DNA of 8,648 bases from Butyrivibrio sp. (GTDB taxonomy: Bacteria > Bacillota_A > Clostridia > Lachnospirales > Lachnospiraceae), in NCBI GenBank assembly GCA_017996845.1, contig JAGOGF010000107.1, positions 1 through 8,648 of the forward strand. Reading direction: 5' to 3'. The position numbers and the translations under genes were made by a program. Below the pieces are notes generated by a model, which was not told the origin of the DNA, made no database searches, and saw only the letters and a program-made list of their open reading frames with translations. Position 1 is the stretch's first letter. Each line of letters begins with the position of its first letter. Below are positions 27-8,648 of the stretch, one piece after another.

Positions 27-56
27 CATATCAGTCAGTGCACGTCAACTATTGAA

Positions 57-88
57 AGCGCCGTGTACCGAACGGTACGCACGGTGCT
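57..88 (+). ncRNA. Group II intron domain V (catalytic hairpin)
   Basis: Hand folding gives a 9-bp lower stem (57-65 with 80-88, containing one G-T wobble 60/85), a two-nucleotide bulge C78-G79 on the 3' strand, a 4-bp upper stem (66-69 with 74-77) and a GAAC tetraloop (70-73). The AGC at 57-59 is at the expected position of the catalytic triad. The 32-nt length is close to the 34 nt usual for the family. The shorter upper stem and a GAAC loop rather than GNRA are mild deviations. Confidence 0.83.
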
Positions 89-90
89 GT

Positions 91-126
91 GAGAGGACGG
101 CGGTTAATCACCGCCTCCTACTCGAT
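91..126 (+). ncRNA. Group II intron domain VI with bulged branch-point A
   Basis: The stem pairs 99-104 (GGCGGT) with 110-115 (ACCGCC) around a TAATC loop, continues with 94-97 against 116-119 (C98 unpaired), and closes with 91-93 against 121-123. This leaves A120 unpaired on the 3' strand, where the branch-point adenosine of group II introns lies. The predicted intron end is GAT at 124-126, which fits the AY-ending rule for the family. Confidence 0.78.
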
Positions 127-474: not shown

Positions 475-1878
475 ATGGGAAAGTGGACGAAACAATTAGA
501 GGAAGTAGTTACGAAGAATAAAGCAAAGATTATTGTACTGGATGATGATCCGACTGGGGTACAGACAGTGCATGATGTATCGGTATATACAGATTGGAAT
601 GTGGAAAATATCAGAAAAGGTTTTCTTGAACAGGAAAAGATTTTTTTTATTTTGACCAATTCCAGAGGCTTTACCATGGAAGAAACAACAAAAGCGCATA
701 GAGAAATAGCGGAACGGGTTTTGAAAGTGGCAAAGGAACTGCAGCAGGAGTATCTGATTGTCAGTCGTAGTGATTCCACTCTTCGTGGACATTATCCGCT
801 GGAAACGGAGATACTGCATGAGGCAATTCGTGATCGAGGATATGGAGAAACAGATGGTGAAATATTATGCCCTTTTTTTAAAGAAGGAGGACGGTTGACA
901 ATAGAGGATGTTCATTATGTGTTATCTGGTGGAGAACTGATCCCTGCCGGAGAAACAGAGTTTGCAAAGGATGAGACCTTTGGTTATCACGCCAGTAACT
1001 TGAGAGAATATGTGGAAGAAAAGACGAAAGGGAAATATAGAGCAGAGAGTTGTCTCAGCATACCATTGAAGATTTTGAAAACAGGAGATATTGAAGCGGT
1101 AGAAAATATTCTGATAAAGTGCAGCAATTTTCAGAAGATTATTGTAAATGCAACAGAAGAGGAAGATCTGGAAGTGTTTTGTATTGCACTATATCATGCC
1201 ATCGCAAAAGGAAAGCATTTTTTATTCCGATGCGCTGCATCATTGGTTAAGGTATTAGGCGGAATTTCAAGCCAACCTTTATTAACCAGAGAGCAGATGA
1301 TAAAAGGAATGCAGATTGGTTTAGGTGAGAAGGAAAATGGCGGAATAATTGTTGTAGGAAGTCATACTGAGAAAACAACAAAACAGCTTGAAAAACTAAA
1401 GGAAATTTCTGAGATTTCTTTTCTGGAAATGAATTCGGATCTGGTTCTGAATTCCGAAAACTTACTGGAAGAATGTAGAAAACTGCAAAATTTGGAAGAA
1501 AAACTGATAGGAGAAGGAGAAACAGTCTGCATTTCAACCAAGAGACAATTACTTAGAATGGAAGATGATACAGCGGAAGAAATGCTGAAGCGATCTGTAC
1601 GAATCAGTGAGGCGCTGCAGAGCTGTGTAGGAAATTTGAAATATGCACCGGCATTTGTAGTGGCAAAAGGAGGAATCACATCCAGTGACGTTGGGATTAA
1701 GGCATTGAGAGTCAGGCATGCAAGAGTCTTAGGGCAAATACAACCCGGGATTCCAGTATGGGAAACAGGAGAAGAAAGTTTGTTTCCGGGAATTCCATAT
1801 ATTATTTTTCCGGGAAATGTCGGGGAAGAAGATACGCTGAAAAAGGTAGCAGAAATATTGTTACAGGATCAAAAGTAG
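475..1878 (+). CDS. Four-carbon acid sugar kinase family protein (DUF1537)
   Basis: Predicted cytoplasmic ATP-dependent kinase of 467 aa. The family (3-oxo-tetronate, erythronate and threonate kinases, and 3-oxo-isoapionate kinase) phosphorylates short sugar acids. The N-terminal substrate domain shows DDDPTG (residues 23-28), TNSRG (61-65), SRSDSTLRGH (97-106), FFKEGGR (134-140) and a DETFGY motif near 166-171. The C-terminal nucleotide-binding domain shows KGGITSSD (398-405) and PGNVG (446-450). Both domains are complete and the length is normal. The start is supported by AAAGGGAG at 458-465. It is the first gene of the catabolic unit, 58 bp ahead of the next. The exact substrate cannot be read from sequence. 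The usual partners of tetronate pathways (OtnC-like aldolase, OtnI isomerase, dehydrogenase) are not in this window, so the substrate may differ from the classical ones. Confidence 0.9.
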   Translation: MGKWTKQLEEVVTKNKAKIIVLDDDPTGVQTVHDVSVYTDWNVENIRKGFLEQEKIFFILTNSRGFTMEETTKAHREIAERVLKVAKELQQEYLIVSRSDSTLRGHYPLETEILHEAIRDRGYGETDGEILCPFFKEGGRLTIEDVHYVLSGGELIPAGETEFAKDETFGYHASNLREYVEEKTKGKYRAESCLSIPLKILKTGDIEAVENILIKCSNFQKIIVNATEEEDLEVFCIALYHAIAKGKHFLFRCAASLVKVLGGISSQPLLTREQMIKGMQIGLGEKENGGIIVVGSHTEKTTKQLEKLKEISEISFLEMNSDLVLNSENLLEECRKLQNLEEKLIGEGETVCISTKRQLLRMEDDTAEEMLKRSVRISEALQSCVGNLKYAPAFVVAKGGITSSDVGIKALRVRHARVLGQIQPGIPVWETGEESLFPGIPYIIFPGNVGEEDTLKKVAEILLQDQK

Positions 1879-1923
1879 TGTGGGAACAATCAGAAAATGA
1901 ACAAAAAAATAGATGACCGTGAA

Positions 1924-1930
1924 AGAAGGG
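1924..1930 (+). promoter_or_regulatory. Ribosome binding site that fixes the start of the racemase-like gene
   Basis: AGAAGGG lies 6 nt before the ATG at 1937. The in-frame ATG at 1913 has only an A-rich run upstream and no Shine-Dalgarno match, so 1937 is preferred. Confidence 0.75.
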
Positions 1931-1936
1931 AAAAGT

Positions 1937-2617
1937 ATGAGAAACGTGAAGGCAGGAATAATTTATACAAGTACAACACCGGAACTGATTGAACTGGTAG
2001 AAAAGGAGGTAAAAAAACAGCTGGGAGCAGAAGTGGAACTTTTTTGTATGGAAGATCCGTCCATTTTGGCAGAAGTGAGAGAAAATGGATATGTAACAGC
2101 AGCACCGGCCGCCAGACTGATCGCTATGTATATGAAGGCAGTTCAGGAAGGCTGTGATGCAATTTTGAATGTGTGCAGTTCAGTAGGCGAAGTGGCGGAT
2201 GCAGTGCAGCAGACGGCAGCTTATATCGGGGTTCCGATTGTGCGGATTGACGAGGAAATGTGTCGGGAAGCAGTGCGGATCGGATCAAGGATTGGTGTGA
2301 TGGCAACACTTCCCACAACACTGGAGCCAACTAAACATACAATCATGAAAATGAGCAGAGAGTGTGGTAAGAAGGTTGCATTAGTGGACTGTATGGTTGA
2401 TGGTGCATTTGGGCTGAATCAGGAGCAGTTTCAACTGCGGATGTCAGAATATGCAGAAAAGATTGCCGATCAGGTGGACGTTATATTATTTGCACAGGGA
2501 AGTATGGCATATTGTGAGAAATACATAGCAGATAAAACTGGCAAAAATGTACTGTCCAGTCCCAGATTTGGTGCGGAAGAACTCAAAAAAGCTTTAATAA
2601 AAAAAGGAAGATTGTGA
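1937..2617 (+). CDS. Asp/Glu racemase superfamily protein with a single catalytic cysteine
   Basis: Predicted cytoplasmic protein of 226 aa of the aspartate/glutamate/hydantoin racemase superfamily (two Rossmann-like halves). The first-half cysteine motif is present as NVCSSVGE (C80, where racemases have a CNT-like loop), and GVMATLPTTLEPT (120-132) is the typical second-half opening. At the position of the second catalytic cysteine, where racemases have a GCT-like motif after a hydrophobic strand, this protein has ILFAQGSMAY (183-192) without cysteine; C193 lies just after. A two-base racemase mechanism is therefore doubtful. The fold also includes maleate isomerase and arylmalonate decarboxylase, so isomerase, decarboxylase or hydrolase activity is possible. 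The start at 1937 follows a good ribosome binding site. The stop overlaps the next start by one base, so it is coupled to the BKACE gene. The substrate is unknown. Confidence 0.82.
   Translation: MRNVKAGIIYTSTTPELIELVEKEVKKQLGAEVELFCMEDPSILAEVRENGYVTAAPAARLIAMYMKAVQEGCDAILNVCSSVGEVADAVQQTAAYIGVPIVRIDEEMCREAVRIGSRIGVMATLPTTLEPTKHTIMKMSRECGKKVALVDCMVDGAFGLNQEQFQLRMSEYAEKIADQVDVILFAQGSMAYCEKYIADKTGKNVLSSPRFGAEELKKALIKKGRL
2605..2610 (+). promoter_or_regulatory. Ribosome binding site that fixes the start of the BKACE gene
   Basis: AGGAAG lies 6 nt before the ATG at 2617 and inside the end of the preceding gene. The adjacent in-frame GTG at 2614 would extend the protein by one residue only; the ATG has the better spacing. 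Confidence 0.7.
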
Positions 2618-3441
2618 TGAAAAAAATACTGATTTCAGTGGCGCCCGTTGATGCTGCAGATACCATATATGATCCGATAAAAACAGCAGAAGATGTAATA
2701 CGGTGTTATCATGCAGGGGCAGCAATGGTGCATCTGCATGTGAGAGATAAAAAAGGAAAACTTACTTCGGATCTGGCGTTGCTCGAACAGACGGTATCCA
2801 TTATTCGTAAAGAAACGGATATGGTGATTGAAATATCAACCGGAGGGGTATCTGATCTGACAATCGAGGAAAGATGCCGTCCCTGCACTGCACCATGGAT
2901 CGAAGTGAACAGTTTGAATGTAGGTTCTGTAAATCTGGGGGAAGCGGTATATCAAAATTCGATACAAGATGTAAAGTATTGTGTGAAACAAATTCTGGGA
3001 AATCATAAGTGGCCGGAGATAGAAGTTTTTGAGCTTGGAATGATCAATACTGTTTTGGAACTTTCCAGAGAATTTTCATTTTCAAAACCGATTCTGTTTG
3101 CTTTCGTATTCGGACATGGTGGAGAGATGCCGGCAACGCCGCAGGCGCTGCATCATATGAGAACTTATCTGAAGGAACTTTTTCCTGAAGAAAGGCAGGC
3201 ATTATGGGGCTATACAGAAGCACATAGAAAAGACTGGAAAATGGTAGAAATGGCACTGGATAGCGGGGCTTCTGCGATACGAATCGGATTTGAGGATTCA
3301 CACATGTTGTCACCTGAAGAAATCGCGGTAAGCAATGAACCTTTGGTGAAAAAAGCAGTAGAACTGGTGCATGAAAGAAAAATGGAATGTATGACACCAT
3401 TCGAAATACGTGAAATGATGAAAGGAAATGTATCATGCTGA
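2617..3441 (+). CDS. Beta-keto acid cleavage enzyme (BKACE, DUF849/PF05853 family)
   Basis: Predicted cytoplasmic zinc enzyme of 274 aa with a TIM-barrel fold. The founding member, 3-keto-5-aminohexanoate cleavage enzyme (Kce), transfers the acetyl part of a beta-keto acid to acetyl-CoA, giving acetoacetate and a new acyl-CoA. Visible family motifs are MVHLHVRD (37-44), whose H39 and H41 correspond to the zinc histidines; STGG (74-77); SLNVGS (99-104); EVFELGM (136-142); and IRIGFED (221-227), whose R222, E226 and D227 keep the spacing of the Kce active-site Arg, zinc Glu and Asp. The position of Kce Glu14, which binds the substrate amino group, appears to be Ala14 here, so the substrate is probably not an amino-keto acid. 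The gene overlaps the upstream stop by 1 nt and the downstream GH127 start by 7 nt. Family assignment is firm; the substrate is open, with a sugar-acid-derived beta-keto acid suggested by the neighbours. Confidence 0.88.
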   Translation: MKKILISVAPVDAADTIYDPIKTAEDVIRCYHAGAAMVHLHVRDKKGKLTSDLALLEQTVSIIRKETDMVIEISTGGVSDLTIEERCRPCTAPWIEVNSLNVGSVNLGEAVYQNSIQDVKYCVKQILGNHKWPEIEVFELGMINTVLELSREFSFSKPILFAFVFGHGGEMPATPQALHHMRTYLKELFPEERQALWGYTEAHRKDWKMVEMALDSGASAIRIGFEDSHMLSPEEIAVSNEPLVKKAVELVHERKMECMTPFEIREMMKGNVSC

Positions 3442-5498
3442 CAAATACAGAAAAATCAAAATATGCAAAAGTGATTCCGCCGACAGAGGAGGTAGTCTGG
3501 AATAATGGATTCTGGAAGGATATGACGGAGCACTGTGCCAGAAATATGGTGCCAAATCTCGAGAATAAATTTGCTGCGACAGATATCAGTCATGTTGTGG
3601 AAAACTTTCGTATTTGTGCCGGAAAAGCGGAAGGAGAGTTTGGTGGCTCGGTATTTGGAGATGGTGATTTTTACAAGTGGATGGAAGCGGCAGCTTATGC
3701 AGCATATATATTGAAAGATAAATCGCTGTATGAACGACTGGATGCGTATATTTCCCTGATTGGAGAAGCACAGCAGGACGATGGATATATTTCTACCAAA
3801 CAGATCATTGAAAGCAGGCAGGGAAAAGGTTTGGGAAGAATGAGCGATATCAATGATTTTGAAGTATATAATATGGGTCATCTTTTTACTTCAGCGTGCT
3901 TATATTTCCGTTTGAGCGGCAAATCCGATTTCCTTGCAATTGCAGAAAAAGCAGCTGGATATCTGGAAAATATGTATGCTGAGGCAGAAAAAAAGGGAGA
4001 GGTAAAAACGGCAGTGTGCCCCTCTCATTATATGGGTTTAATAGAACTATATAGAACTACGAAAAAGGAAAAATATCTTGTACTGGCAGAAAAAGCTGTA
4101 AAATTAAGAGATTCAGTTAAAAATGGTTTAGATGATAATCAGGATAGAATTCCGCTTAAAAAACATGAAAAAATTGTTGGACATGCTGTCAGAGCAAGCT
4201 ATCTCTATGCAGGGCTAGCAGATCTCTATGCAGAGGAGGGTGATGCAGAATATTATGAAGTTTTGCAAAAAGTATGGGGAAATATGGTTAGCAGCAAATT
4301 GTATCTGACCGGTGGAATCGGCGCTTTATATAATGGCGTAGCGCCATATGGGAATTTTTTTGGTGATCAGAAAATTCATCAGGCCTTCGGGTATGAATAC
4401 CAATTGCCGAATATAACAGCGTATAATGAAACGTGTGCGTCGATCGGTCTGGTGATGTGGGCATACCGTATGTTTTTGATTGAGCCGAAAGCGGAATATT
4501 TTGATGTACTTGAAAGAGCAATGTTAAATGTTAATCTGGCAGCAGTAAGTTTAGATGGCAAAAATTATTTTTATGAAAATATGCTGCGAAGAACTGACAA
4601 ACTTGAATACAAGCTGGTATGGCCTTTAAAGAGAACTTCCTATCTGATCAGCTATTGCTGCCCGCCGAATCTGGCACGTACGATTATGGAATCTGCTGAA
4701 TATGCTTATACAACCGGAGAAGACAGTGTCTGGTGCGGATTGTATGGCGGCAGTCAGGCAAATTTCATTTTGAAAAATGGTGCGGAATTTATGTTGGAAC
4801 AAAAGACAGCGTATCCCTATGATGGAAAAATAGAATTCAATTTTTCAGAAATAAAAAAGGAAAAAGTAGTAAAATTGATGCTTCGTATTCCTGCATGGGC
4901 AGAGAGCGGCAAGATCATAATCAGAAATATAAAAGAAGGTATTATGGGAGCGCAGATTCTGAAAAAAGAAGATGCAGGAAGCTATATTCAGGTCATGGTA
5001 AATTCTATGAAAGAAATCCAGATCGAATTGCAGCTTGATATGCCGGTCAGGTATACAATAGCAAATCCTATGATAGAAGAAGATATCGGACAGGCAGCTA
5101 TCGAAAAAGGCCCTTTGGTATATTGCATGGAACGTGCGGATCTGTCAGAGATGTATGCGGATCAAAATGCTGCAGAAAAAGATGAAATGCTGCATGGTGG
5201 AGAAGAAATGCATACTTCATTGAAAATGGATAATCTATGGCTGAATACAGAAACACAATGGAAATCAGTTTCGATGGAACTGCAGGGAGAAACAATTATG
5301 GCACTTCAGGGAGAGGCCTGGTTAATTGAGGACAAAGATGTGCAGATGCCGGATATGGGAAGAAGAACAATCCGGAACCTGTACAAAACGCTTTCTTCTA
5401 AAAAGAAAGTATCTGTAAAAGTGCAGATGATACCATATTTTGCATGGGATAATCGTGGTATGGGAGAAATGAGGATATGGTTCCCGTATTCAATATAA
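3435..5498 (+). CDS. GH127-family glycoside hydrolase (DUF1680), cytoplasmic
   Basis: Protein of 687 aa, close to the 658 aa of the Bifidobacterium beta-L-arabinofuranosidase HypBA1. Family members use a zinc-bound cysteine nucleophile and remove beta-L-arabinofuranose or, in some relatives, other sugars such as aceric acid. Hallmarks visible are LTGGIG, YQLPN (323-327), NETCASIG (331-338; E332 and C334 as zinc ligands) and SYCCPPNLAR (406-415; C408 as nucleophile, C409 as zinc ligand). An (alpha/alpha)6 barrel fills roughly residues 10-430, followed by beta-rich domains. The expected acid/base Glu, 16 residues before the zinc Glu, is Gln316 in the run HQAFGYEY; E321 lies nearby. There is no signal peptide, so it should act on imported oligosaccharides, in line with the sensor pair and possible importer downstream. 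The start has AAAGGAA at 3421-3427 and overlaps the BKACE gene by 7 nt. The exact glycan is not readable. Confidence 0.9.
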   Translation: MLTNTEKSKYAKVIPPTEEVVWNNGFWKDMTEHCARNMVPNLENKFAATDISHVVENFRICAGKAEGEFGGSVFGDGDFYKWMEAAAYAAYILKDKSLYERLDAYISLIGEAQQDDGYISTKQIIESRQGKGLGRMSDINDFEVYNMGHLFTSACLYFRLSGKSDFLAIAEKAAGYLENMYAEAEKKGEVKTAVCPSHYMGLIELYRTTKKEKYLVLAEKAVKLRDSVKNGLDDNQDRIPLKKHEKIVGHAVRASYLYAGLADLYAEEGDAEYYEVLQKVWGNMVSSKLYLTGGIGALYNGVAPYGNFFGDQKIHQAFGYEYQLPNITAYNETCASIGLVMWAYRMFLIEPKAEYFDVLERAMLNVNLAAVSLDGKNYFYENMLRRTDKLEYKLVWPLKRTSYLISYCCPPNLARTIMESAEYAYTTGEDSVWCGLYGGSQANFILKNGAEFMLEQKTAYPYDGKIEFNFSEIKKEKVVKLMLRIPAWAESGKIIIRNIKEGIMGAQILKKEDAGSYIQVMVNSMKEIQIELQLDMPVRYTIANPMIEEDIGQAAIEKGPLVYCMERADLSEMYADQNAAEKDEMLHGGEEMHTSLKMDNLWLNTETQWKSVSMELQGETIMALQGEAWLIEDKDVQMPDMGRRTIRNLYKTLSSKKKVSVKVQMIPYFAWDNRGMGEMRIWFPYSI

Positions 5499-5585
5499 AG
5501 CGGCGCGGTTGTTTATCTGTGATAGTATGTGCAATCTGTATGCAGAAAAATGCTGGCTCTATGGAATTTAGAATGTTCCGGAAAG

Positions 5586-7340
5586 ATGATTAAGGCAATG
5601 CAAATAAGCAAGTTGGGGATTAAGAAAAAAACTATCAGTTTTAAAAAACAGCTGATTTGTGCGATGGTTTTCACAGCAGCAGTGCTTTTATTGATTTTGG
5701 GAAGCGTGATCTATCAGATTTCCAAAACGGAACTGGAAAAAAAATACAGAGAAACACATGCATATAATATGGAATTATTCAGCAGCAGCCTTCTTTTGCA
5801 TTTTCAGGAAATAACGGATGCTTCCAGAAATTTGCTTGAGAATTTTACATTTATTGAAGTGATGACATCTGAGGATGGGAATGGAAACTATTTTTCTGCA
5901 TCTAATCAGAGATTGATAGAAAAAATTCTGAATAAAATGGAAGATGCAGACAATAATATCCAGGGAGCACTTGTGGTAAATCGGAATGGACAGTTTCGAT
6001 ATTTACCAAAGCGATCTTCTCAAAGTAATCTCATGAACAAATATTACAATAACGATGAATTATTAAAAATGAATTGGGTGAAGGTTGCAGATGAGGCAAA
6101 AGGAAAAGAAGTCTTTTATGGATATGATGTGCTCTCGGATAGTGACCTGGAAATGATTTCAATGGTAAAACGACTCAATAATCCGGAGACGGGAGAGCTT
6201 TTTGGATATCTGGTAGTCAATATAGAGAAAAGCATGATAGACAAAACATTCGGAACAAAAATGGACGGGTTTGAGGGAAACAGCTATCTGATTCTGGATA
6301 CGAACATAGAAAGAAGGCAGACAAAAGGAAAACAGCAGGTTGTTTATAATAATATGCGCAATGACATACTTCCGGATGTACTGGATGCATATCAGACAAA
6401 GAATCAGAAAAAATATTTATTCAGTACCTATCATGACGAGGTCAGTCAGTGGGATATTATCAGCGTGATTGACAGAAAGGAGCTCTCCAGACAAAGTGAT
6501 TATATAAAATGGGTGGTTGCAATGGGCGTTTTGATTCTGATTGCGGCATTTGTACCTATTGCGACCATCTTAACGCAGAAAATCAACAAGCCGCTTGAAC
6601 TTCTGGAACATACCATTCAGGAAGTTGGGCGTGGTAATTATAAAGTGGATGCAGAATTTGATGATAGCGAGATTGGAATTGTAGGACAGCATTTTCTGAG
6701 CATGTCTCAAAATAATCTGGAACTTAGAGACAGGCTTTTGAATTCAGAATTGAAAGAGCGGGAAGCAGAACTTTTACTGCTTCAATCTCAGATCAATCCA
6801 CACTTTTTGTATAATACGCTGGATGCGCTGTATTTTATGGCACTGCTTGATAAAGCAGACGATGTGGCGGGAATGGTAAAAAATCTTTCCGATATGTTTA
6901 AACTCAGTCTGAATAAAGGAGATAAGACGATTGCAGTACATGCGGAACTGGAGAAAATTGAAGCATATATGAAGATCCAGAATTTGCGTTACCAAAATCG
7001 TTTTGAACTGAATATCGATATTGCAGAAGATATAATGCAGGAAAAAATACTTGCATTTCTATTACAGCCTTTGGTTGAGAATGCAGTGACCCATGGTCTG
7101 GAAAGTAAGATTGGTAATGGATCCATTTCCATTATAGGGTATAAAGAACAGGAAACGCTCCATTTCACGCTTCATGATAATGGCATCGGAATATCCGACA
7201 TGTCTCTCCTGGATAAGGGCTATGGTGTAAAAAATGTCAGAGAACGTATAAAACTTTTTTACGGAGAAAAATATGATGTGGTATATGAAAGCGTAATTGG
7301 AGAAGGAACTACGGTTTTTTTAACATTTCCGAGGATATGA
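5586..7340 (+). CDS. YesM-type membrane sensor histidine kinase
   Basis: Two-component sensor of 584 aa from the chosen start. Order: short basic cytoplasmic tail, first membrane segment (about 23-45), extracellular sensor of about 260 aa (46-306, probably a Cache-type domain by analogy), second membrane segment (about 309-329), HAMP linker (about 330-382), then a His_kinase (PF06580) domain with QINPHFLYNTL carrying phospho-acceptor H406, and an HATPase domain with LVENAVTHG (N499), DNGIGI (D531) and GYGVKNVRERI (from G545). This is the class paired with AraC-type regulators for sugar uptake. The start is uncertain. A GTG at 5529 and ATGs at 5550, 5586 and 5598 are all in frame and none has a good ribosome binding site; 5586 has GGA close upstream and 5598 has AAGG too close. 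All options keep the membrane segment. It lies about 87 bp after the GH127 gene and 92 bp before its partner regulator. Confidence 0.9.
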   Translation: MIKAMQISKLGIKKKTISFKKQLICAMVFTAAVLLLILGSVIYQISKTELEKKYRETHAYNMELFSSSLLLHFQEITDASRNLLENFTFIEVMTSEDGNGNYFSASNQRLIEKILNKMEDADNNIQGALVVNRNGQFRYLPKRSSQSNLMNKYYNNDELLKMNWVKVADEAKGKEVFYGYDVLSDSDLEMISMVKRLNNPETGELFGYLVVNIEKSMIDKTFGTKMDGFEGNSYLILDTNIERRQTKGKQQVVYNNMRNDILPDVLDAYQTKNQKKYLFSTYHDEVSQWDIISVIDRKELSRQSDYIKWVVAMGVLILIAAFVPIATILTQKINKPLELLEHTIQEVGRGNYKVDAEFDDSEIGIVGQHFLSMSQNNLELRDRLLNSELKEREAELLLLQSQINPHFLYNTLDALYFMALLDKADDVAGMVKNLSDMFKLSLNKGDKTIAVHAELEKIEAYMKIQNLRYQNRFELNIDIAEDIMQEKILAFLLQPLVENAVTHGLESKIGNGSISIIGYKEQETLHFTLHDNGIGISDMSLLDKGYGVKNVRERIKLFYGEKYDVVYESVIGEGTTVFLTFPRI

Positions 7341-7406: not shown

Positions 7407-7418
7407 TAATGCCAGCTG

Positions 7419-7425
7419 AAAGGGA
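7419..7425 (+). promoter_or_regulatory. Ribosome binding site that fixes the start of the response regulator
   Basis: AAAGGGA lies 7 nt before the ATG at 7433. The in-frame ATG at 7409 lacks a Shine-Dalgarno match and would add eight residues not typical of the receiver domain N-terminus. Confidence 0.75.
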
Positions 7426-7432
7426 TGAAAGT

Positions 7433-8491
7433 ATGAGACGGGTCGTGGTGATAGATGATGAATATATTGTTGTTGCGGGTATGACTGCTATCCTGGATCG
7501 ATTAAATCTTGATTTTCATATTGTGGCGTCTGCTTCTAATGGAATAGATGGACAGGAAGTGATACGCAGGGAAAAGCCTGATGTTGTGTTTACGGATATT
7601 CGGATGCCGGGACTGGATGGACTTTCCATGATCGAAAATATTAAAGAAGAGCTTCCGAAAACAGTGTTTGTTGTAATCAGTGGCTATACCGAATTTGAGT
7701 ATGCCAGACGTGCACTTCAGCTGCAGGTCGAAGACTATCTTGATAAACCGATTACAATGGAAAAAGTGGGTAAGTGTCTGACAGATATTGGAAACAGAGA
7801 ACGGGATAAAAAGAATAAGTTAATGCAGGAGGAAAGTGAAGCACAAAATGGTGTGAAACTGGATGACATGGCTATTAATGCACTGATTATGTCGGATAGT
7901 GAGGCACTGCGTGAGAACAGCAGAAAGTATCTGCAAAGACTGATAGAAACCTGTAGAGATTTTAATTCTGTGAAAGAGGGAACCTATCGATTTCTGTGTG
8001 TTATTCTGGAGATTTTTGCAGGGCAGAAAAATCAGTATGATGAGAAAATGATTATTCCCTGTACCACTGTGATGGAATTGGAATCAAAAGGGGAATTGGA
8101 AAAATATATGGAACAGGTGATCAGCAGAATCATTGCAGTTATAGAAGCAGATAAGGTGTCCTGCAATCATCGTGGTATTACTGACGCGCTGCAGTTTATT
8201 AATGATAATTATGACAAAGATATCGGATTAACGGAAGTGGCCGGCTATGTAAATCTTGCACCTGCCTATCTCAGTATTTTATTCAAAGAAAATGTTGGGA
8301 CAAGTTATGTGAAATATCTTACGGATATTCGTATGAAAAAAGCAAAAAAATTATTGACGCAGGGATATAAAGTTGCCGAAATCAGTGAAAAAGTAGGCTA
8401 TAACAACTATAGATATTTTTGCGATATATTCAAAAAGCATACAGGGGTGACACCAAATGAGTATCGCAGCAGTGCAGGAGCAAGAATCTAA
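7433..8491 (+). CDS. YesN-type response regulator with AraC-family DNA-binding domain
   Basis: Cytoplasmic transcription regulator of 352 aa. The N-terminal receiver domain (1 to about 120) has the acidic pair D8-D9, phospho-acceptor D55 in FTDIRMPG, S83 in VISGY and K105 in LDKPI, so it should be phosphorylatable. A middle part of about 125 aa (121-246) has no motif I recognise. The C-terminal AraC/XylS domain (about 249-347) contains two helix-turn-helix units: the first around LTEVAGYVNLAPAYLSILFK, the second around VAEISEKVGYNNYRYFCDIF, ending in the typical TGVTPNEYR. It is the natural partner of the kinase immediately upstream. Likely targets are the gene starting at 8613 and perhaps the enzyme operon; this is inferred from position, and I did not find its binding site. 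Confidence 0.93.
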   Translation: MRRVVVIDDEYIVVAGMTAILDRLNLDFHIVASASNGIDGQEVIRREKPDVVFTDIRMPGLDGLSMIENIKEELPKTVFVVISGYTEFEYARRALQLQVEDYLDKPITMEKVGKCLTDIGNRERDKKNKLMQEESEAQNGVKLDDMAINALIMSDSEALRENSRKYLQRLIETCRDFNSVKEGTYRFLCVILEIFAGQKNQYDEKMIIPCTTVMELESKGELEKYMEQVISRIIAVIEADKVSCNHRGITDALQFINDNYDKDIGLTEVAGYVNLAPAYLSILFKENVGTSYVKYLTDIRMKKAKKLLTQGYKVAEISEKVGYNNYRYFCDIFKKHTGVTPNEYRSSAGARI

Positions 8492-8612: not shown

Positions 8613-8648
8613 ATGAAACAGAAATTACTGGCAGCGATACTATCAACA
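8613..8648 (+). CDS. Start of a probable secreted protein, possibly an ABC sugar-binding lipoprotein (partial)
   Basis: Only 12 codons are visible, reading MKQKLLAAILST. A lysine pair followed by a hydrophobic alanine/leucine/isoleucine run is the normal beginning of a signal peptide. Genes directly after YesM/YesN pairs in Clostridia are often extracellular solute-binding lipoproteins of CUT1 sugar importers, followed by two permease genes. The start itself is well supported by the strong ribosome binding site. The function is inferred from context and cannot be confirmed from the visible part; the lipobox would lie beyond the window. Confidence 0.65.
   Translation, partial: MKQKLLAAILST

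What the first reader, a model, noticed from the sequence alone, without database searches (positions are those of the whole stretch)
475..5498. Unusual catabolic gene set: DUF1537 kinase, one-cysteine racemase-like protein, BKACE and GH127 in one unit
The sequence shows four collinear genes, the last three overlapping. DUF1537 kinases usually sit with a dehydrogenase and an aldolase/decarboxylase of tetronate or apionate pathways. BKACE enzymes act on beta-keto acids with acetyl-CoA. GH127 enzymes release L-arabinofuranose or related sugars. I know no described pathway that combines them. One reading is that GH127 frees a sugar or acid sugar (for example from pectin side chains), it is oxidised to a beta-keto sugar acid, phosphorylated by the kinase, isomerised by the racemase-like protein, and split by BKACE instead of by a decarboxylating aldolase. 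The dehydrogenase needed for this scheme is absent from the window and may lie upstream of the intron or elsewhere.
Basis: partly seen in the sequence, partly recalled or inferred. Interest (0 to 1): 0.7.

Follow-up and report, generated by a model that had tools for sequence, protein, structure and literature searches.

The report
Candidate aceric acid utilisation operon
Four neighbouring bacterial genes look like a set for releasing and breaking down aceric acid, a rare branched sugar acid of plant pectin for which we found no described breakdown route.

Summary
Confirmed: a DUF1537 kinase (KIN), a one-cysteine racemase-fold protein (RAC), a BKACE-family enzyme and a GH127 hydrolase lie collinear at 475-5498, the last three overlapping. 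The set is conserved: of 200 genomes of one family, 12 have a GH127 of the high-scoring kind; BKACE occurs in 12 of 12 against 8 of 188 others, KIN in 11 against 15, RAC in 7 against 2. The GH127 clade is sister to PDB 5MQO, which passes the aceric acid hydrolase model (1096 bits); the window's protein scores 714, below the cut-off of 950. Relatives add apiosidase, rhamnosidase and beta-galactosidase genes, i.e. RG-II context. Best reading: GH127 frees aceric acid; RAC isomerises it to a ketose; BKACE splits that into acetaldehyde and 3-oxo-tetronate; KIN phosphorylates the latter towards DHAP. No dehydrogenase is needed, as the substrate is already an aldehyde. In relatives a dedicated transketolase, mostly with dehydratase and reductase, stands in for BKACE/KIN, or microcompartment genes are added. 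The substrate is supported by context; every reaction is inference. The papers listed by our searches showed no aceric acid catabolism.

The parts
56..126 (+). 3' end of a group II intron upstream of the unit; not part of the pathway
   Evidence: Rfam RF00029, 46.7 bits, gathering 40
475..1878 (+). KIN: DUF1537-family acid-sugar kinase; proposed to phosphorylate 3-oxo-tetronate or its C6 precursor
   Evidence: PF07005 + PF17042; D-threonate kinase model 50.6 and 3-oxo-tetronate kinase model 29.9 bits, far below cut-offs; found in 11 of 12 genomes with the high-scoring GH127
1937..2617 (+). RAC: Asp/Glu-racemase-fold protein with one catalytic-type Cys; proposed aldose-ketose isomerase for aceric acid
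2617..3441 (+). BKACE-family enzyme; proposed C-C cleaving step
   Evidence: PF05853 204 bits; His-x-His kept in 65 of 68, Arg223/Glu227/Asp228 in 68 of 68 locus rows, and in Kce
3435..5498 (+). GH127, no signal peptide seen by eye; proposed cytoplasmic aceric acid hydrolase
   Evidence: NF049879 714.4 bits, positions 7-656 of 657, cut-off 950; sister clade of 5MQO; 5MQO 1096.5 bits
5529..7340 (+). Membrane histidine kinase; proposed regulator, part of the cluster
   Evidence: PF06580, PF02518; HAMP 22.2, below its cut-off of 25; HK-RR-SBP-ABC order in L008, L034, L041, L042 and L127
7409..8491 (+). AraC-type response regulator
   Evidence: PF00072, PF12833
8613..8648 (+). First 12 codons of a further gene, probably the ABC solute-binding protein
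   Evidence: Sequence and the HK-RR-SBP order of L008; inference

Best explanation
The unit is for aceric acid (3-C-carboxy-5-deoxy-L-xylose) from a side chain of rhamnogalacturonan II. Oligosaccharides enter by an ABC transporter whose binding protein probably begins at the window's right end. (1) GH127 frees aceric acid in the cytoplasm. (2) RAC, with its single Cys as base, isomerises the aldose to the ketose HOCH2-CO-C(OH)(COO-)-CHOH-CH3. (3) BKACE binds this beta-keto acid through its metal and splits C3-C4 by retro-aldol, giving acetaldehyde and 3-oxo-tetronate (2-oxo-tetronate shares the same enediol). (4) KIN makes 3-oxo-tetronate 4-phosphate, which loses CO2 to DHAP. (5) Acetaldehyde goes to acetyl-CoA; in some relatives this appears to happen inside a microcompartment. 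Step 3 may follow step 4. Shown: genes, conservation, GH127 clade, RG-II context. Inferred: substrate and all reactions. Sub-confidences: GH127 acts on aceric acid 0.8; RAC/BKACE/KIN degrade aceric acid 0.65; RAC is the isomerase 0.45; BKACE is a retro-aldolase 0.35.
For: GH127: clade of the window and 40 homologues (39 distinct sequences in all), sister to 5MQO, support 0.993 and 1.0, with 18 of 18 lower-scoring GH127s outside; shared Phe142 (His in 18 of 18), Gln316 (Glu in 18 of 18) and an insertion with Pro304, Gly306 and His315; 5MQO passes the aceric acid hydrolase model; BT1003 is named aceric acid hydrolase in PMC10850190 (passage). Co-occurrence. RG-II context: apiosidase next to the set in L034 and L127, GH78, GH42 and an isomerase/FGGY/split-transketolase module in the same clusters L142, L145. 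Ending: L077 has RAC and BKACE with OtnK (572, cut-off 350) and OtnC (271, cut-off 250), OtnI just under (305 of 325). Acetaldehyde: of 80 RAC loci 12 have a gene of the cluster whose L010 member is EutE/PduP-like, 11 PduL, 13 shell genes. RAC as isomerase: 9 of 80 loci pair RAC with a dedicated transketolase and have neither KIN nor BKACE in the DNA held; with IlvD-like genes already seen there, I noted that a reductase should be present before reading those genes, and 6 of 9 have one, the same six that have the IlvD-like gene. L151 has RAC, this transketolase and GH127 in one same-strand run.
Against: The window GH127 misses the NF049879 cut-off (714 of 950), as do all matches in 200 and 291 genomes, and is 38% identical to 5MQO. 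Nothing was assayed; an isomerase with the racemase fold and a retro-aldolase among BKACEs would both be new. Other aldolase-type genes occur in some loci (class II aldolase 10 of 80, FBA-like 8 of 80; transaldolase-like 4 of 80 clustered, plus L141 and L151), which leaves BKACE's role open. L139 has KIN, a thiolase and a BKACE in a row, as canonical BKACE chemistry would want. 52 of 80 RAC loci show no GH127, though L034, L063 and L066 have one just outside; of 22 genomes searched whole, 18 have no close GH127, so their substrate may differ. L005, L020 and L028 have the transketolase but no dehydratase or reductase in the DNA held. G427 has the GH127 with no module beside it. RAC of four genomes of the 12 is only a distant relative (28-33%), and G097 shows none.
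Confidence: 0.58

Rival explanations
1. Same substrate, canonical BKACE: an oxidised and phosphorylated derivative with a free alpha carbon is cleaved with acetyl-CoA to acetoacetate and an acyl-CoA; the dehydrogenase lies elsewhere and RAC is a true epimerase.
For: His-x-His, Arg, Glu and Asp of BKACE kept. BKACE on 2-deoxy-3-ketoribonate, giving glyceryl-CoA and acetoacetate, is proposed from mutant fitness data (PMC6365646, passages). L139 has KIN, thiolase and BKACE in a row.
Against: I saw no dehydrogenase, thiolase or CoA transferase recurring in the KIN-RAC-BKACE-GH127 loci; the proposed ketose has no alpha hydrogen, so a Claisen step cannot run on it (argument).
Confidence: 0.18
2. The core RAC/KIN/BKACE handles another small branched or C4 hydroxy acid (for example an apionate- or erythronate-like acid); GH127 is only a frequent neighbour in pectin users.
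For: 52 of 80 RAC loci show no GH127, many with TRAP or PanS-like carriers; KIN relatives elsewhere sit beside an HIBADH-family gene in 9 of 12 loci fetched, 5 of these with a PdxA-family gene and a second DUF1537 kinase.
Against: The high-scoring GH127 is tied to the set in two genome samples, also to the transketolase version (L065, L151); the same clusters hold a separate probable apiose module (L142, L145); KIN has no OiaK match at E<=1e-3.
Confidence: 0.15
3. One reading: GH127 frees L-arabinofuranose or a related sugar, which is oxidised, phosphorylated, isomerised and split.
For: GH127 includes beta-L-arabinofuranosidases (PMC10850190, passage).
Against: The window's clade lacks the His and Glu that 18 of 18 lower-scoring GH127s and 4QJY share; no dehydrogenase in the set.
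Confidence: 0.05
4. Aceric acid is the substrate, but RAC is not the isomerase: another protein (cupin, xylose-isomerase-like or sulfoquinovose-isomerase-like) makes the ketose and RAC epimerises or decarboxylates a later intermediate.
For: Cupin in 15 of 80 loci; xylose-isomerase-like TIM barrel beside the transketolase in L005, L024, L038 and L151.
Against: Among the 28 loci with GH127 the ORF map shows no cupin, one xylose-isomerase-like and four sulfoquinovose-isomerase-like genes; L065 with L140 shows none. RAC is the gene shared by both downstream versions, but it was also the search query.
Confidence: 0.2

Closest known systems
Aceric acid hydrolase (GH127; NCBIfam NF049879; PDB 5MQO, which I recall to be BT1003)
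   Same: Family, domain make-up, sister clade, shared clade residues and insertion
   Different: 38% identity to 5MQO, below the model's cut-off, no signal peptide seen by eye, sits with a catabolic set
3-oxo-tetronate and D-apionate pathways with DUF1537 kinases (OtnK/OtnC/OtnI, OiaK; pathways recalled)
   Same: A DUF1537 kinase on a beta-keto acid is the proposed chemistry; L077 combines OtnK and OtnC with RAC and BKACE
   Different: Window kinase matches OtnK at 29.9 bits (cut-off 350) and OiaK not at all at E<=1e-3
[quoted passage not shown]
   Same: BKACE acting on a sugar-derived beta-keto acid
   Different: There a dehydrogenase makes the keto acid; the passages name no kinase or racemase-like protein before the cleavage
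D-apiose pathway with kinase aplK and transketolases aptA, aptB (PMC13001218, passages)
   Same: Branched RG-II sugar and split transketolase; a probable apiose module lies in L142 and L145
   Different: The transketolase paired with RAC is at most 42% identical to the probable apiose type
SPU and GRM5/PVM microcompartments (PMC8217296, PMC4207490, passages)
   Same: An aldolase-made aldehyde is oxidised in a shell
   Different: Relatives here carry BKACE, RAC and TRAP genes beside the shell genes; none of this is in the window

Membership tests
Aceric acid hydrolase (NF049879) | Score over curated cut-off (950 bits) | tested here: not met
   714.4 bits; so not filed as a member, only as acting like one
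Aceric acid hydrolase (NF049879) | GH127 catalytic, middle and C-terminal domains over the full model | tested here: met
Aceric acid hydrolase (NF049879) | Groups with a protein over the cut-off rather than with other GH127 | tested here: met
   tree; 5MQO 1096.5 bits
Aceric acid hydrolase (NF049879) | Release of aceric acid from RG-II | not testable with these tools
   needs an assay
BKACE (PF05853) | Pfam gathering score | tested here: met
   204 against 24.8
BKACE (PF05853) | Metal-ligand His-x-His and Glu, with Arg and Asp | tested here: met
   present in the window; 65 of 68 and 68 of 68 rows; that they bind the metal is recalled
BKACE (PF05853) | Acetyl-CoA-dependent cleavage | not testable with these tools
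   no assay; four NCBIfam BKACE-type models hit, all below cut-off
Asp/Glu racemase superfamily | Fold | tested here: met
Two-cysteine Asp/Glu racemases | Two catalytic cysteines | tested here: not met
   Ser in the second place, 99 of 99 rows; the place was assigned by motif
DUF1537 kinases | SBD_N and NBD_C domains | tested here: met
3-oxo-tetronate kinase OtnK (NF043035) | Curated cut-off 350 | tested here: not met
   29.9 bits
D-threonate kinase (NF047819) | Curated cut-off 450 | tested here: not met
   50.6 bits
3-oxo-isoapionate kinase OiaK (NF042436) | Curated cut-off 700 | tested here: not met
   no match listed at E<=1e-3

The most novel reading that the evidence does not exclude
This is the first catabolic system for aceric acid. 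A racemase-fold protein with one catalytic Cys is a new aldose-ketose isomerase, and a BKACE is a CoA-independent retro-aldolase. Three exchangeable downstream modules exist: BKACE plus kinase; the same with an acetaldehyde microcompartment; and a dedicated transketolase with reductase and dihydroxy-acid dehydratase that turns the ketose into 2-oxobutanoate. Free aceric acid is also scavenged through TRAP carriers by bacteria that lack the hydrolase.
Probability: 0.3. Interest if true: 0.85.

Novelty: new variant of a known kind. Interest (0 to 1): 0.72.

Why it matters
[quoted passage not shown] Aceric acid is one of its marker sugars; a 2025 review lists the enzymes that make it as unidentified (PMC12168206, passage), and the papers our searches listed showed no catabolic route. 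If right, the finding names the genes, gives a redox-neutral pathway testable with four purified proteins, assigns new chemistry to two enzyme families, and suggests a substrate for a microcompartment type that I could not match in the passages read, and for cross-feeding in gut and sediment.

Tried and rejected
Arabinofuranosidase reading: set aside on the GH127 tree and residues. Apiose as substrate of KIN/RAC/BKACE: set back because a separate probable apiose module lies in the same clusters (L142, L145). Lactaldehyde as the aldehyde: first idea, dropped when the carbon count gave acetaldehyde. RAC relatives in the PDB by sequence: none at E<=0.001 with one sequence, only chance-like hits at E 0.47-0.63 with the profile. 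KIN in the PDB: none at E<=0.001. The Kce numbers were wrong; one search repeats the check by motif. Promoter/terminator scan: 19 and 2 sites against 24.1 and 4.3 expected, uninformative.

Prediction of dehydratase plus reductase downstream of the transketolase in L005, L065, L020 and L028: at L065 the dehydratase was already in view and the reductase was then found (L140); at L005 neither, a transaldolase-like gene instead (L141); at L020 and L028 neither in the DNA held.

ORF calling is home-made; L056's dehydratase was missed through an antisense ORF and recovered. Rows dropped by length: RAC outside 200-300 aa, BKACE outside 240-330, KIN outside 420-560, GH127 under 560 aa, among them the broken copy of G097. 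RAC-like proteins of L120-L122 and L124 (28-33%) were not counted as RAC in the statistics. Families were checked by models on one or two members of a cluster, the rest follow by clustering; FGGY, RhaB/RhaA, GntR (beyond L013) and histidine kinase/regulator labels in relatives were partly read by eye.

Literature: listings only, apart from seven papers of which I read passages. Aceric acid searches: 40 papers, 30 listed; 7 of 7; 7,014, 12 listed; 20, 12 listed; neighbouring terms: 31, 32, 69, 70. None of the listed titles or abstracts tells of aceric acid catabolism. Most subscription papers are not held, so this is weak.
Full report
WHAT IS THERE. The window holds, on the + strand, a group II intron 3' end (56-126), KIN 475-1878, RAC (about 1937)-2617, BKACE (2617)-3441, GH127 3435-5498, a histidine kinase 5529-7340, an AraC-type response regulator 7409-8491 and the first codons of another gene at 8613. 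RAC, BKACE and GH127 overlap by 1-4 and 7 nt. No whole genome is held for the window. The nearest BKACE and RAC in the protein search, the window's own aside, are about 99% identical proteins from ENA or NCBI contigs.

THE SET IS CONSERVED. A scan of genome contigs with an alignment of 20 RAC homologues gave 153 confirmed relatives, of which the best 80 were kept as L001-L080. By clustered ORFs, 56 of 80 have BKACE, 48 KIN, 28 GH127, 37 a TRAP large subunit and 16 one of the ABC permeases (flanks at most 10 kb, many contigs end earlier). Of the 28 with GH127, 22 have KIN or BKACE by this method. Of the other six, L005 and L065 have the transketolase version, L059 and L076 show KIN by tblastn, and in L051 and L062 the contig ends within or just after a partial GH127 match.

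DENOMINATORS FROM THE OTHER SIDE. In 200 genomes of the family of G001 (the genome of L008, so one hit was known beforehand), the aceric acid hydrolase model hits 56 at E<=1e-100. In 12 genomes the best score is 593-774 bits, in the other 44 at most 519; none passes 950. In the 12: BKACE (E<=1e-25) 12, KIN (E<=1e-20) 11, RAC (E<=1e-40) 7. In the other 188: BKACE 8 (six at 94-107 bits; the other two, G004 and G006, are RAC-TRAP genomes L007 and L013), KIN 15, RAC 2 (the same G004 and G006). One of the 12, G097, has a BKACE match of only 94 bits, a KIN with a stop inside and a short GH127, and looks as if the locus were decaying. Nominal Fisher p 2e-14, 2e-10 and 1e-8; related genomes make these a guide only. 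In seven of the 12 all four genes share a contig within about 21 kb; G097 has three of them side by side; in G177, G178, G201 and G118 the BKACE is on another contig than the GH127, beside a distant RAC-like gene of PF01177 (28-33% identity).

In a second sample, 291 genomes of the class, sharing at least G001 with the first, the high-scoring GH127 occurs in four (750-806 bits; the next are 530 and 505). G001 and G484 have KIN, RAC and BKACE nearby (G484 in the window's order, with a partial RAC), G383 has RAC, a xylose-isomerase-like gene, the split transketolase, a GntR gene, a transaldolase-like gene and GH127 in one run (L151), and G427 has nothing recognisable beside it. RAC hits (E<=1e-40) 2 of 291, both in these four; BKACE hits (E<=1e-40) 5 of 291, of which G290, G453 and G510 sit in other contexts.

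THE GH127. The best solved relative is 5MQO (470 bits; next 309). Its letters, as printed in that alignment, pass the aceric acid hydrolase model (1096 against 950); the window does not (714). The tree holds 41 proteins of the window's kind (window, 26 from L001-L080, L081-L091, L142-L144; 39 distinct), the 18 lower-scoring ones fetched (L093-L110), 5MQO and 4QJY. The 41 form a clade (0.993) whose sister is 5MQO (1.0); all 18 fall outside (midpoint root). The clade and 5MQO have Phe where the 18 and 4QJY have His (142), Gln where they have Glu (316), and an insertion with Pro304, Gly306 and His315. From memory, active-site residues of HypBA1 include a His and a Glu that I take to be these. BT1003 is named as the aceric acid hydrolase among characterised GH127/146 enzymes in a figure legend of PMC10850190 (passage); that 5MQO is BT1003 is recalled. 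I say it works like an aceric acid hydrolase; I do not file it as a member, since the cut-off is not met.

RG-II CONTEXT. L142 with L034 (one genome) reads: sulfoquinovose-isomerase-like protein, split transketolase, FGGY kinase, GH78, GH127, GH42, HK, RR, SBP, two ABC permeases, GH63-like, apiosidase (PF13204, 334 bits), KIN, RAC, BKACE. L145 with L127 (one genome) is the same with a cupin, TRAP, GntR, class II aldolase and aldehyde dehydrogenase added. L152 has a GH106-type gene (PF17132 54.7, gathering 29). That RG-II holds aceric acid and apiose is in the papers seen; the order of chain B (galactose on aceric acid on rhamnose on apiose) is recalled. aplK, aptA and aptB are the apiose genes of PMC13001218 (passages); naming the module here as apiose is an inference.

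CHEMISTRY. Aceric acid is OHC-CHOH-C(OH)(COO-)-CHOH-CH3 (recalled). Its 1,2-ketose is a beta-keto acid of the same shape as 3-oxo-isoapionate. Retro-aldol at C3-C4 gives acetaldehyde and 3-oxo-tetronate, the substrate of OtnK, whose product is decarboxylated to DHAP (recalled). Four hints fit. (a) L077 (Succinatimonas) has OtnK and OtnC over their cut-offs and OtnI just under, with RAC, TRAP and BKACE. (b) Of 80 loci, 12 carry a gene of the cluster whose L010 member is EutE/PduP-like (NF011927 643 bits), 11 PduL (PF06130), 13 shell genes (PF00936); aldolase-made acetaldehyde in a shell is proposed for SPU loci (PMC8217296, passage). (c) Of 12 fetched KIN loci from genomes without this set, 9 have an HIBADH-family gene beside KIN, 5 of them also a PdxA-family gene and a second DUF1537 kinase, i.e. 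threonate-type operons. (d) Nine of 80 RAC loci have a dedicated transketolase and neither KIN nor BKACE in the DNA held; its subunits are 66% or more identical within the nine and at most 42% identical to the probable apiose type, L066 being in between. From the ketose it would give 3-hydroxy-2-oxobutanoate, which wants a reductase and a dihydroxy-acid dehydratase. IlvD-like genes had been seen there; I wrote that a reductase should be present before reading the genes. Six of nine have both: IlvD-like with a 3HCDH-family gene (L024, L038) or a PanE-family gene (L056, L058 cut by the contig end, L065 by way of L140, L067). L005, L020 and L028 have neither in the DNA held.

ROLE OF EACH GENE. 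RAC is the gene common to both downstream versions, which makes it the best isomerase candidate; but RAC was the query, so this is partly by construction. A single base suits a cis-enediol isomerisation; the Cys is kept and Ser stands in the second place in 99 of 99 rows, 88 of them distinct. The fold is that of Asp/Glu racemases. BKACE keeps His-x-His in 65 of 68 rows (two of the three exceptions are the same broken gene of G097, the third a 242-aa ORF in L124) and Arg, Glu and Asp in 68 of 68. Its usual acetyl-CoA reaction cannot run on the proposed ketose, which has no alpha hydrogen, whereas a metal-held enolate is what a retro-aldolase needs; this is argument, not data. Against it, other aldolase families appear in some loci, and L139 has KIN, a thiolase and a BKACE in a row.

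LOCI WITHOUT GH127. Of 22 whole genomes taken from loci, 8 had a GH127 match at E<=1e-30, four of them close (50-68% identity): L008, L034, L063 and L066, all with ABC genes. The other 18, of TRAP, microcompartment, transketolase or other-carrier type, had none (14) or only distant ones (4; 34-38%). They may take up the free acid, or a different acid.

VERDICT. Observation confirmed; interpretation partly supported. A conserved catabolic unit, probably for aceric acid: substrate likely, mechanism open. The papers listed showed no catabolic route for aceric acid; most subscription papers are not held.

Noticed in passing
window 56-126: 3' end of a group II intron just upstream of KIN; the unit may be cut off from its native upstream region.
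   Followed up: no
L002, L004, L007, L009-L014, L031: RAC-TRAP-GntR-BKACE followed by class II aldolase, CoA-acylating dehydrogenase, PduL and shell genes: a microcompartment type I could not match in the passages read.
   Followed up: partly
L024, L038, L056, L058, L065/L140, L067, L151: RAC with a dedicated split transketolase; all but L151 also with an IlvD-like gene and a PanE- or 3HCDH-family reductase.
   Followed up: partly
L142, L145: Probable apiose module (isomerase-like, FGGY kinase, split transketolase) upstream of GH78-GH127-GH42.
   Followed up: partly
L126 (G097): KIN, BKACE and GH127 of one locus look broken together, as if the pathway were being lost.
   Followed up: no
L139 9161-12683: KIN, a thiolase and a BKACE in a row, with an SDR-like gene: perhaps a different pathway using the same families.
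   Followed up: partly
L037, L039, L043, L045, L053, L054: Loci with RAC and BKACE, an HbpS-like gene and no TRAP genes; a PanS-like carrier in four of six and an FBA-like aldolase in four of six.
   Followed up: no
L002 19339-20568 and the like in 14 loci: A CoA-disulfide-reductase-like flavoprotein recurs, mostly at the end of the microcompartment loci; role unknown.
   Followed up: no
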